Assembly: GCA_027604705.1 (NCBI GenBank)
Contig: JADHYV010000135.1
Location: 1 to 29,395, forward strand
DNA length: 29,395 nucleotides
Direction: 5' to 3'
Origin: Allomyces arbusculus
Lineage: Eukaryota > Blastocladiomycota > Blastocladiomycetes > Blastocladiales > Blastocladiaceae
Under the pieces are notes generated by a model that was not told where the DNA came from, made no database searches, and was given only the letters and a program-made list of their open reading frames with translations. Position 1 is the stretch's first letter; every line of letters begins with the position of its first letter. Below, one piece after another: positions 8,439-10,257 of this stretch. The position numbers and the translations under genes were made by a program.

Positions 8439-8730
8439 TTTTTGATTCGAATTAGCGGGACATGGCGTCTGCAGCAAGTCGCGGCATGTAAAATGAATGG
8501 GTTAGATAAACGTTGGACGATTAAGCTAACGCTTTACATTTTGTTACAAGGCGTCCATTACCCGCGATTACTCAGTGATTTTGGCAGTGGACTTCCTGAT
8601 CCAACACAATGTGAAAACTGGGCAAATTTGGGCAAAACTGGGAATTTATCACTTTCTGGCAGCAACAAGAGGCCCGACAGACAGGAGCGACGTCTCGTCG
8701 ACCTCCTTCGCGCGCACGACGATGATTGGT
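8439..8730. promoter_or_regulatory. Spacer between HEAT gene start and histone H4 3' end
   Basis: About 290 bp, AT-richer than the flanking genes. It must hold the promoter of the minus-strand HEAT gene and the region where the H4 transcript is cut. I see no clear TATA box. A GCGAAGGAGG purine stretch lies about 20 nt past the H4 stem-loop on the minus strand (near 8710) and could serve as a histone downstream element, but nothing comparable follows the H3 stem-loop. Confidence 0.4.
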
Positions 8731-8749
8731 TGTGGCTTTGAGAAAAGCC
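8730..8749 (-). promoter_or_regulatory. Histone mRNA 3' stem-loop behind H4
   Basis: Read on the minus strand: GGCTTT (stem), TCTC (4-nt loop), AAAGCC (stem), then ACAA. This has the layout of the conserved histone 3' element: 6-bp stem, 4-nt pyrimidine-rich loop, GG/CC at the base, ACA-type 3' flank. It lies about 100 nt past the H4 stop codon, where the metazoan element sits. In animals it binds SLBP and directs U7-guided cleavage without polyadenylation. The identical element stands behind H3. Confidence 0.88.
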
Positions 8750-8850
8750 GGGTTGAAGAATAAAAATCAGAACAAAAACGAGAACGAGGAAATCACAACG
8801 ATGCTTGGGTCACCGGCACTTGTTGAGGGTGAGGACGAATGCGGGCGCGC

Positions 8851-9252
8851 TTAGCCGCCGAAGCCGTAGAGCGTGCGGCCCTGGCGCTTGAGCGCGTAGA
8901 CAACGTCGAGCGACGTGACAGTCTTGCGCTTGGCGTGTTCGGTGTAGGTGACGGCGTCGCGAATGACGTTCTCGAGGAACGACTTGAGGACGGCGCGCGT
9001 CTCGTCGTAGATGAGGCCCGAGATACGCTTGACACCGCCACGGCGGGCAAGACGGCGGATGGCTGGCTTGGTGATGCCCTGGATGTTGTCACGCAAAATC
9101 TTGCGGTGGCGCTTGGCGCCGCCCTTACCAAGACCTAGAGGAGGGCGAAGATAGGATGTTGATGAGCGACCTGAACGTTGGAGCGGGAGTCGGCCAGTCG
9201 GCATGCTGACGGGGTCGAGCGTACCCTTGCCACCCTTGCCACGGCCAGACAT
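8851..9252 (-). CDS. Histone H4
   Basis: Core nucleosome histone, 103 aa, the family's exact length. Two exons: 9252-9225 and 9134-8851, with a 90-nt GT-AG intron splitting the Gly codon after GKGGK. The spliced start is [20 protein letters not shown], and the chain ends TLYGFGG. The acetylatable tail lysines are present. Relative to animals it has I at the usual V21, RAVLKSFLE in helix 2 and TVTSLDV, which are yeast-like. Reading through the intron keeps an open frame but inserts a non-histone segment, so the spliced form is preferred. It shares a promoter with H3 in head-to-head order. Its transcript ends in a histone-type stem-loop, which suggests S-phase, replication-coupled regulation. 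Confidence 0.97.
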
Positions 9253-9335
9253 GATGATTGAAAGTGAGGGGGAGTTAAGAGAGATGTGACGAGAACGTCG
9301 CTGCCAGACCAGAGCTGGACGCGGGGCGGGTCCGG

Positions 9336-9343
9336 TATTTGTA
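9336..9343 (-). promoter_or_regulatory. TATA-like box for H4
   Basis: Minus-strand TACAAATA, 84 nt upstream of the H4 ATG. It mirrors the position of the ATAAAA box on the H3 side. Confidence 0.5.
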
Positions 9344-9420
9344 GGGTCGCCGTCTTGTTCGCGGCGAGGAGTGAGTCCGACTGTCCCAACGATGCAAACC
9401 GCTGGCCAGCTCCACGTTCC

Positions 9421-9451
9421 GCACGTGCCTGTCAAATCCATCGGCACGTGC
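9421..9451. promoter_or_regulatory. Twin GCACGTGC palindromes (E-box type)
   Basis: Two identical 8-bp palindromes at 9421-9428 and 9444-9451, centres 23 bp apart, near the middle of the H4/H3 spacer. CACGTG is the core site of bHLH factors such as Cbf1. Being palindromic, the pair could act in both directions. Confidence 0.55.
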
Positions 9452-9578
9452 AGCAGCAGCCGGCACATGCCCGCTCCGGACTGGCAAGAGACTTTGCGGC
9501 TCGTTGCCGTCTCCCTGTGTCCTTGCCTCGTCACTTCGCTTCTCCTAAGCCCCGCTCACGCTCACACGCTGGCCCGCC

Positions 9579-9584
9579 ATAAAA
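9579..9584 (+). promoter_or_regulatory. TATA-like box for H3
   Basis: ATAAAA within CGCCATAAAACCGG, about 84 nt upstream of the H3 ATG. This is a credible distance for a short 5' untranslated region. Confidence 0.55.
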
Positions 9585-9667
9585 CCGGCCACTCCCCCAC
9601 TGCTCGGCCCACTTCTCTCCAGCAGTCACTCCGACCTCTTCCCCTCTCATCCAACCAGCACCCCACC

Positions 9668-10078
9668 ATGGCCCGTACCAAGCAGACCGCGCGCAAGTCG
9701 ACGGGTGGTAAGGCGCCCCGCAAGCAGCTCGCGACCAAGGTTGCGCGCAAGTCGGCGCCCGCCACCGGTGGTGTCAAGAAGCCCCACCGCTACCGCCCCG
9801 GCACGGTCGCGCTGCGTGAAATTCGCCGCTACCAGAAGTCGACTGAGCTGCTCATCCGCAAGCTGCCGTTCCAGCGCCTCGTTCGCGAGATTGCCCAGGA
9901 CTTCAAGACCGACCTGCGCTTCCAGTCGTCGGCCGTTGGGGCCCTGCAGGAGGCGGCCGAGGCCTACCTCGTCGGTCTCTTCGAGGACACCAACTTGGCC
10001 GCCATCCACGCCAAGCGTGTCACTATCCAGCCCAAGGACATCCAGCTGGCCCGCCGTCTCCGTGGCGAGCGCAACTAA
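9668..10078 (+). CDS. Histone H3
   Basis: Core nucleosome histone, 136 aa including Met, uninterrupted. It begins [20 protein letters not shown], with K4, K9, S10, K14 and K27 all present, and ends ARRLRGERN. The variant-diagnostic stretch is [11 protein letters not shown]87/A88/V89 as in replication-coupled H3.1/H3.2 but G90 as in H3.3, with A31 (not S31). This mixed state is usual for fungi with a single H3 type. V stands at residue 24 where animals have A, and Q at residue 120 where animals have M. The ATG sits in CACCATGG. It is divergent from H4 and followed 159 nt later by a histone stem-loop. Confidence 0.98.
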
Positions 10079-10237
10079 GTGCTCGTCAGGTGACGCACCG
10101 TTCCCTTCCGAAGCCGCGCATGCCGTCGTCGTCGTCCAAGTCGAGCCGCGCCACGTCCAAGTGACATGATCGTCGTGATCGCCGTCGTCGCCGTTTGATC
10201 TTTACTTCGTTTTGTTATTGCTGTTCCTTTTCTCCCC

Positions 10238-10257
10238 GGCTTTTCTCAAAGCCACAA
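10238..10257 (+). promoter_or_regulatory. Histone mRNA 3' stem-loop behind H3
   Basis: GGCTTTTCTCAAAGCCACAA: 6-bp perfect stem, TCTC loop, ACAA flank. It is base-for-base the same as the element behind H4, including CCC just before the stem, while the surrounding 3' sequences differ. It begins 159 nt after the H3 stop. Confidence 0.88.

What the first reader, a model, noticed from the sequence alone, without database searches (positions are those of the whole stretch)
8730..10257. Metazoan-type histone 3' stem-loops behind both H4 and H3 in a fungus-like genome
Identical 20-mers (GGCTTTTCTCAAAGCCACAA) follow H4 and H3, one on each strand, each as a perfect 6-bp stem with a TCTC loop and an ACAA flank. 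The rest of the two 3' regions is unrelated, so the element has been kept by selection or conversion. The accepted picture is that yeasts and other well-studied fungi polyadenylate histone mRNAs and lack this element, while animals and some protists have it. The histone and intron features here look fungal. If that placement holds, this lineage kept, or regained, SLBP-type histone mRNA processing.
Basis: partly seen in the sequence, partly recalled or inferred. Interest (0 to 1): 0.85.

Follow-up and report, generated by a model that had tools for sequence, protein, structure and literature searches.

The report
Histone stem-loops and SLBP in Allomyces
An aquatic fungus (Allomyces) carries the same kind of small RNA hairpin behind its core histone genes that animals use in place of a poly(A) tail, together with a gene for the protein that binds it, so this old eukaryotic system was probably kept in at least some fungi although it is usually described as absent from them.

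Summary
Confirmed and extended. The two 20-mers are exact; shuffles give none. The host is Allomyces (Blastocladiomycota): its SLBP RNA-binding domain is 100% identical to A. macrogynus and 99% to A. javanicus. The hairpin sits 86-159 nt after the stop of all six replication-type core histone genes found (two H4, two H3, H2A, H2B). Only loop base 2 varies (C, A or T), and conservation ends at ACAA. Three intron-containing variants (H2A.X, two CENP-A-like, by eye) lack it.

The genome encodes a full SLBP (Pfam 102 bits; the A. macrogynus model fits human SLBP 4qoz at 0.7 A). SLBP is also listed from chytrids, Monoblepharomycota and Neocallimastigomycota, and fungal SLBPs group together with modest support: retention is likelier than regain. 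No U7 snRNA, U7-type downstream element or Lsm10/11 was found, but that negative is weak. Mature 3' ends were not tested.

New lead: the SLBP N-terminus of Allomyces and several chytrids has a PAM2-like (PABP-binding) motif, though Pfam's PAM2 model does not list it.

The parts
8851..9252 (-). histone H4 gene (103 aa) with one intron (9135-9224) close to its start
   Evidence: ORF and splice sites read from the sequence; C-terminus GRTLYGFGG located, stop ends at 8851; exon 2 identical to the second H4 on C55
8730..8749 (-). histone 3' stem-loop of H4: stem GGCTTT/AAAGCC, loop TCTC, tail ACAA; 101 nt after the stop
9668..10078 (+). histone H3 gene (136 aa, unbroken reading frame)
   Evidence: Pfam Histone 159 bits at 9686-10063
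10238..10257 (+). histone 3' stem-loop of H3: identical 20-mer; 159 nt after the stop
9253..9667 (.). shared divergent H4/H3 promoter region
   Evidence: lies between the two start codons
9430..9451 (+). TGTCAAATCCATCGGCACGTGC, a promoter element also present (one Y change, other orientation) between H2B and H2A on contig C16

Best explanation
The two 20-mers are true histone-mRNA 3' stem-loops of an Allomyces species. They work as SLBP-bound ends of replication-type histone mRNAs. Shown here: the element is behind all six core histone genes found and not behind three intron-containing variants; its sequence and fold fit the stem-loop; the genome encodes an SLBP with a complete RNA-binding domain; SLBP is listed from several zoosporic fungal groups. 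Inferred: SLBP binds the hairpin in the pre-mRNA; the CPSF73/symplekin nuclease cuts just after ACAA, where conservation stops; the mRNA leaves without a poly(A) tail and is stabilised and translated through SLBP during S phase. The system is most likely inherited from the common ancestor of fungi and animals. It probably works without a U7 snRNP.
For: Six of six replication-type core histone genes found carry the hairpin 86-159 nt after the stop. H3, H2A and H2B were found by Pfam, not by the element; a separate search with H4 protein found two H4 genes, both of which carry it. 19 of 20 columns are invariant; loop base 2 is C in four copies, A in one, T in one. A genome-wide pattern GGNNNTTNTNANNNCCAC gave 36 matches; 7 have a perfect 6-bp stem (roughly 0.6 expected, 36/64), six being the histone copies and one (C7:394322) inside a long reading frame. 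SLBP gene on C7: both domain halves over Pfam's cut-off in the raw genome, spliced protein 102 bits, E 1.6e-29, 94% identical over 447 columns to the annotated A. javanicus protein. Human SLBP 4l8r E 2.7e-14; AlphaFold domain of A. macrogynus P0001 pLDDT about 96, 4qoz TM 0.88 of target, 0.7 A. The Arg that reads the second stem G (Arg181-G7, PMC10388802 passages) is kept in STRSW of the alignment (numbering of the human residues recalled).
Against: No RNA data. Rfam Histone3 stays below its cut-off. The stem is the same in all six copies, so there is no covariation within this genome. No U7 parts were found. The TPNK motif reads TPDK. Both H4 genes carry an intron, unlike typical animal replication-dependent histone genes (recalled).
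Confidence: 0.8

Rival explanations
1. The hairpins bind SLBP but do not set the mRNA end: histone mRNAs are cut and polyadenylated further down, and the hairpin serves export, translation or stability only.
For: No U7 snRNA, Lsm10/11 or U7-type downstream element found. AATACA or AATATA-type words lie within 300 nt downstream in 2 of 6 genes. C. elegans histone genes carry both a hairpin and a poly(A) signal (PMC1924863, passages).
Against: Conservation stops after ACAA, 4 nt behind the stem, as expected if this is the mRNA end: mean best-base count falls from 5.9 to 2.7 of 6. 4 of 6 genes have none of the A[AT]TAAA, AATACA or AATATA words within 300 nt, though fungal poly(A) signals can be looser (recalled). 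In C. elegans, too, most histone mRNAs were found to end after the hairpin.
Confidence: 0.2
2. SLBP and the element came into zoosporic fungi by transfer from algae, oomycetes or animals (regained).
For: The fungal group as a whole has only 53/87 support, and Allomyces is not firmly tied to the chytrid group.
Against: Fungi form one group on the tree (1 change; 85% of 200 bootstrap trees), the other fungi at 96/97; four fungal phyla carry it; Allomyces and seven chytrid SLBPs (six in the strict form, one loose) share an N-terminal motif.
Confidence: 0.05
3. The 20-mer is a recently spread repeat or a DNA-level transcription terminator, not an mRNA element.
For: Four of six copies are identical.
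Against: Exact and one-mismatch copies are found only behind histone genes, in the sense orientation and at 86-159 nt; two copies differ only at the loop base where the animal consensus (recalled) allows change; a cognate SLBP exists.
Confidence: 0.02
4. The contigs are contamination from an animal or alga.
For: None found.
Against: The SLBP is Allomyces; histone copies lie on four contigs of the same assembly.
Confidence: 0.01

Closest known systems
Metazoan replication-dependent histone mRNA stem-loop with SLBP and U7 snRNP
   Same: 6-bp GG...CC stem with a 4-nt U-rich loop, A-containing 3' flank, behind H2A, H2B, H3 and H4, with a cognate SLBP domain
   Different: ACAA rather than ACCCA-type tail (animal form recalled); no U7 RNA, downstream element or Lsm10/11 seen; H4 genes have an intron; SLBP has TPDK and a PAM2-like motif
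C. elegans histone hairpin with CDL-1 (SLBP)
   Same: Hairpin and SLBP; a U7 snRNP is not known there (recalled)
   Different: C. elegans genes carry a poly(A) signal close behind the hairpin (PMC1924863 passages); 4 of 6 Allomyces genes show none of the tested words within 300 nt
SLBP of green algae, oomycetes, early land plants and protists
   Same: Domain 44-58% identical to the Allomyces one in the named algal and oomycete hits; same ancient domain
   Different: Strict form of the N-terminal motif in 1 of 155 rows outside the named fungal set, and that row (P0004) is of unknown origin
PAM2 motif of PABP partners (such as Ataxin-2)
   Same: SLBP LKLSAPAFYP against the genome's own Pfam-level PAM2 stretches LNPNASAFVPNFGAPAFTP and FNVHAPAFTP
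   Different: Pfam's PAM2 model does not list the SLBPs at E up to 10, so it is a look-alike, not a filed member

Membership tests
Histone 3' stem-loop | 6-bp stem and 4-nt loop of the form GGYYYTTHTHARRRCC (consensus recalled) | tested here: met
   6 of 6 copies read GGCTTTTHTCAAAGCC
Histone 3' stem-loop | Present behind replication-type core histones, absent from variants | tested here: met
   6 of 6 core genes found; 0 of 3 intron-containing variants. A fourth other Pfam Histone locus, C46, was set aside by eye as an NF-YC-like protein; it has no match either.
Histone 3' stem-loop | Rfam RF00032 gathering score | tested here: not met
   Best 25.3 of 34 bits, one copy; none in the window. 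The 46-nt model extends beyond the 20-mer.
Histone 3' stem-loop | Mature mRNA ends after the hairpin without poly(A) | not testable with these tools
   No RNA data; only the edge of conservation at ACAA
SLBP (PF15247) | RNA-binding domain over Pfam cut-off | tested here: met
   102.2 bits against 27
SLBP (PF15247) | Three-helix domain fold of SLBP | tested here: met
   Model of A. macrogynus P0001, whose domain is identical: 4qoz_C TM 0.88 of target, 0.7 A
SLBP (PF15247) | Arg that reads the second G of the stem | tested here: met
   Aligned Arg in STRSW / human SRRSW; role from PMC10388802 passages
SLBP (PF15247) | TPNK motif | tested here: inconclusive
   TPDK here, as in several other SLBP rows
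U7-dependent histone processing | U7 snRNA | tested here: inconclusive
   RF00066 best 19.7 of 34 bits, E 0.78; at the E limit used (10), 12 of 14 prokaryote controls also ring
U7-dependent histone processing | Lsm10 and Lsm11 | tested here: inconclusive
   15 Sm/Lsm-type genes seen (14 of 15 canonical Sm/Lsm proteins by my reading, Lsm4 missed, plus NAA38); none read as Lsm10/11
U7-dependent histone processing | Purine-rich downstream element | tested here: not met
   In 60 nt behind the hairpins no shared word of 5-9 nt clearly beyond shuffles, and no [AG]AAAGA or AAGAG word in the first 45 nt of 6 genes
PAM2 motif | Pfam PF07145 match | tested here: not met
   Not listed for 10 fungal SLBPs at E up to 10; HMMER filters may drop so short a motif. 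The genome search with PF07145 rang at C96 and C2, not at the SLBP gene.
PAM2 motif | A-x-x-[FY]-x-P core with hydrophobic residue at -4 | tested here: met
   9 of 14 fungal rows (three of them Allomyces), 1 of 155 others; shuffles expect 0.15 and 0.68

The most novel reading that the evidence does not exclude
In zoosporic fungi SLBP is a physical bridge between the histone stem-loop and poly(A)-binding protein. A PAM2-like motif in its disordered N-terminus docks on the MLLE domain of PABP, so tail-less histone mRNAs still recruit PABP and its translation functions. This would be a second way of closing the loop on histone mRNA, different from the vertebrate route through SLBP partners, and it would operate without U7.
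Probability: 0.35. Interest if true: 0.8.

Novelty: new member of a known kind. Interest (0 to 1): 0.6.

Why it matters
Histone mRNA ending in a stem-loop is usually taught as an animal feature that fungi lack (recalled). Finding hairpin and binding protein together in a blastocladialean fungus, and SLBP listed from four zoosporic fungal phyla, points to presence of the system in the fungal ancestor. It would make its later loss in yeasts and moulds a datable event (the loss itself was not tested here). Chytrids can already be transformed (Spizellomyces, PMC7213984, passages), so U7-free histone 3'-end formation and the possible SLBP-PABP bridge can be tested directly.

Tried and rejected
Rfam scan of the window at gathering threshold: nothing. 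Rfam Histone3 and U7 in the genome: no match over cut-off. A shared downstream (HDE-like) word: none clearly beyond shuffles. An upstream word TGATTTTT is shared by 4 of 6 genes (0 of 200 shuffles) but was not followed up. Linker histone H1: none found, but no control rang either, so nothing follows. The C7:394322 perfect hairpin was set aside because it lies inside a long open frame; the C13 3-mismatch copy because its stem is broken; the Pfam Histone match on C46 because it reads like an NF-YC-type protein, by eye. Contamination and mobile-repeat readings were rejected (see rivals). The RNA 2008 survey of histone 3'-end processing in protists is recalled only; it is not held.

Paper searches for the system in fungi showed no report of it in what was listed. 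They cover open-licence PMC papers only, and searches listed 20 of 58, 20 of 46 and 15 of 37 papers. Most subscription journals and bioRxiv itself are not held. Databases already label Allomyces and chytrid proteins as SLBP, so the protein as such is not new. Absence of SLBP from Mucoromycota or Dikarya was not tested: one search lists 120 of 1737 hits and one search lists 53 of 53, many of them unnamed. The tree used 48 of 49 chosen rows (one dropped for lack of the anchor motif) out of 168 proteins held.

One search read gapped rows for P0001 and P0002 and is superseded, which left out 8 of 168 proteins for lack of the anchor motif. In one search the 14 fungal rows include three Allomyces sequences (own gene, P0001, P0002).

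Full report
OBSERVATION. The 20-mer GGCTTTTCTCAAAGCCACAA is present exactly once on each strand, at 8730-8749 (-) and 10238-10257 (+), with no other match within 3 mismatches in the window and none in 100 shuffles. It lies 101 nt after the H4 stop and 159 nt after the H3 stop.

HOST. The window is one whole contig (C135) of a 25.9-Mb assembly in 197 contigs. The SLBP domain of this genome is 100% identical to A. macrogynus AMAG_07792 and 99% to an A. javanicus protein. Over 447 columns the gene model is 94% identical to the A. javanicus protein; against A. macrogynus it is 86% over 438 columns, with a 34-residue gap near the N-terminus. Allomyces is Blastocladiomycota, Fungi. The species was not settled.

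THE ELEMENT IN THE WHOLE GENOME. Four exact copies and two with one mismatch lie behind histone genes: H4 and H3 on C135, H2B and H2A on C16 (divergent pair), a second H4 on C55 and a second H3 on C166, the last cut at its start by the contig end. Distances from stop to stem are 101, 159, 102, 94, 86 and 113 nt. In a six-row stack 19 of the 20 columns are invariant; loop base 2 reads C, C, A, C, C, T. The mean best-base count is 5.9 of 6 inside the element, 3.8 in the 20 nt before it (a pyrimidine-rich stretch) and 2.7 in the 20 nt after it; one isolated invariant column lies further out on each side. The edge behind ACAA is therefore sharp. The consensus GGYYYTTHTHARRRCC of animal elements (recalled) allows exactly A, C or T at the variable base. 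A looser pattern, GGNNNTTNTNANNNCCAC, has 36 matches in the genome; 7 have a perfect 6-bp stem, the six histone copies and one inside a long reading frame.

THE BINDING PROTEIN. Pfam SLBP_RNA_bind rings over its cut-off in two neighbouring exons on C7. The spliced model (exons 143108-142630, 142562-142454, 142380-141673 and 141601-141557, minus strand, introns 67, 73 and 71 nt) gives 446 aa, one full domain (102.2 bits, E 1.6e-29, run with the earlier version of the last exon), and follows the annotated A. javanicus protein to the last residue. In the PDB the best match is human SLBP of the ternary complex with the stem-loop (4l8r, E 2.7e-14). An AlphaFold model of the A. macrogynus protein has a confident three-helix domain (pLDDT about 96) within a largely low-confidence protein (mean 57.5); the domain fits 4qoz chain C at 0.7 A. 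The Arg that contacts the second stem guanine (Arg181-G7; PMC10388802, passages) is conserved in the alignment; TPNK reads TPDK.

SPREAD. The searches listed SLBPs named from Entophlyctis, Gaertneriomyces, Boothiomyces and Nowakowskiella (Chytridiomycota), Hyaloraphidium (Monoblepharomycota), Piromyces (Neocallimastigomycota) and Allomyces, and from Spizellomyces, Thoreauomyces, Phlyctochytrium, Fimicolochytrium and Geranomyces (chytrids by recall; not looked up). In a tree of 48 domain rows the 13 fungal rows need one change (support 53/87; one group in 85% of bootstrap trees), and the 11 non-Allomyces fungal rows plus one unnamed row form a group at 96/97. With 80 columns this is supportive, not decisive. 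Retention from the ancestor shared with animals is the simplest reading. Histone 3' regions of the chytrids were not seen, so the hairpin itself is shown for Allomyces alone.

HOW IT PROBABLY WORKS. SLBP binding to the hairpin is inferred from sequence and fold. Cleavage just behind ACAA is inferred from the edge of conservation. The U7 arm of the animal machinery was looked for and not seen: U7 RNA (best 19.7 of 34 bits, E 0.78), Lsm10/11 (15 Sm/Lsm-type genes read as SmB, D1, D2, D3, E, F, G, Lsm1, 2, 3, 5, 6, 7, 8 and NAA38, with Lsm4 missed; identities by my reading of motifs) and a downstream element. Since introns can hide small genes in a six-frame search, absence is likely rather than shown. 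The nuclease step by CPSF73/symplekin is taken from the animal system (PMC9756948, passages); these proteins were not searched for here.

A NEW LEAD. Near the N-terminus the Allomyces SLBP reads LKLSAPAFYPGIGF; Gaertneriomyces WNLDAPAFTP; Spizellomyces WNLDAPSYVP; Phlyctochytrium FNVNAPTYVP; Boothiomyces AISAPEFIP (loose form). This resembles PAM2, the PABP-binding motif (cores such as LNPNATAFLP and FNPAATPYTP are printed in PMC12898128, passages). The strict form occurs in 9 of 14 fungal rows (three of them Allomyces) and in 1 of 155 other rows; shuffles expect 0.15 and 0.68. Shuffling the part before the domain gives it in 0.5-1.3% of trials for P0001, P0002, P0078 and P0128. Five fungal rows lack the strict form; one of these (Boothiomyces) has the loose form. 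The same genome's two Pfam-level PAM2 stretches read LNPNASAFVPNFGAPAFTP and FNVHAPAFTP, sharing the APAFxP core, and a PABP-type MLLE domain is present (102 bits). Against: Pfam's PAM2 model lists none of ten fungal SLBPs at E up to 10 and does not ring at the SLBP gene in the genome search. The loose form is no commoner in the other rows than by chance (10 of 155, 10.4 expected). A paper search joining PAM2 and SLBP showed no such report among 20 of 46 listed. In vertebrates SLBP is described as a molecular mimic of PABP (PMC7139794, passage); a PAM2 motif would instead make it a recruiter of PABP.

NOVELTY. Kind: known (SLBP-bound histone stem-loop). Member: new, as far as the listings of the open-licence library show. 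The U7-free form and the PAM2-like motif could make the fungal version a variant, but neither is proven.

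Noticed in passing
window 9430-9451 (+); L021 (C16) intergenic H2B/H2A: A 22-nt element TGTCAAAYCCATCGGCACGTGC is shared by the H4/H3 and H2B/H2A divergent promoters; 9 CACGTG sites fall in three histone promoter regions (1.3 kb), out of 35 in the 92 kb examined, these regions included. Possible histone promoter element.
   Followed up: partly
window 9135-9224 (-); L022 around 490-560: Both H4 genes have an intron near the start of the coding region although they carry the stem-loop; the H3, H2A and H2B frames seen are unbroken, the C166 H3 being cut at its start by the contig end.
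   Followed up: partly
L024 (C4) and L026 (C56): Two different divergent, intron-rich H3 genes that both look like CENP-A; two such genes in one genome would be unusual for a fungus (recalled; assignment by eye).
   Followed up: no
L027 (C62): Intron-containing H2A ending in SQEY (H2A.X type) beside a stem-loop H2A on C16 that ends SQSDAE.
   Followed up: partly
85 nt upstream of the six stem-loops: T-rich stretch with TGATTTTT in 4 of 6 genes, 0 of 200 shuffles; possibly a second 3' signal.
   Followed up: partly
P0088, P0092, P0097: Three unnamed SLBPs share CPMSAV[AS][FY]KPGMSV upstream of the domain, a loose match to the same PAM2-like core.
   Followed up: no
window 10696-11200 (+): Reading frames that look like prefoldin subunit 2, split by introns, downstream of H3 (by eye).
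   Followed up: no
window 28571-29395 (-): Reading frame of degenerate QAQFQGQ...DVSGHGHS-type repeats, open at the contig end.
   Followed up: no
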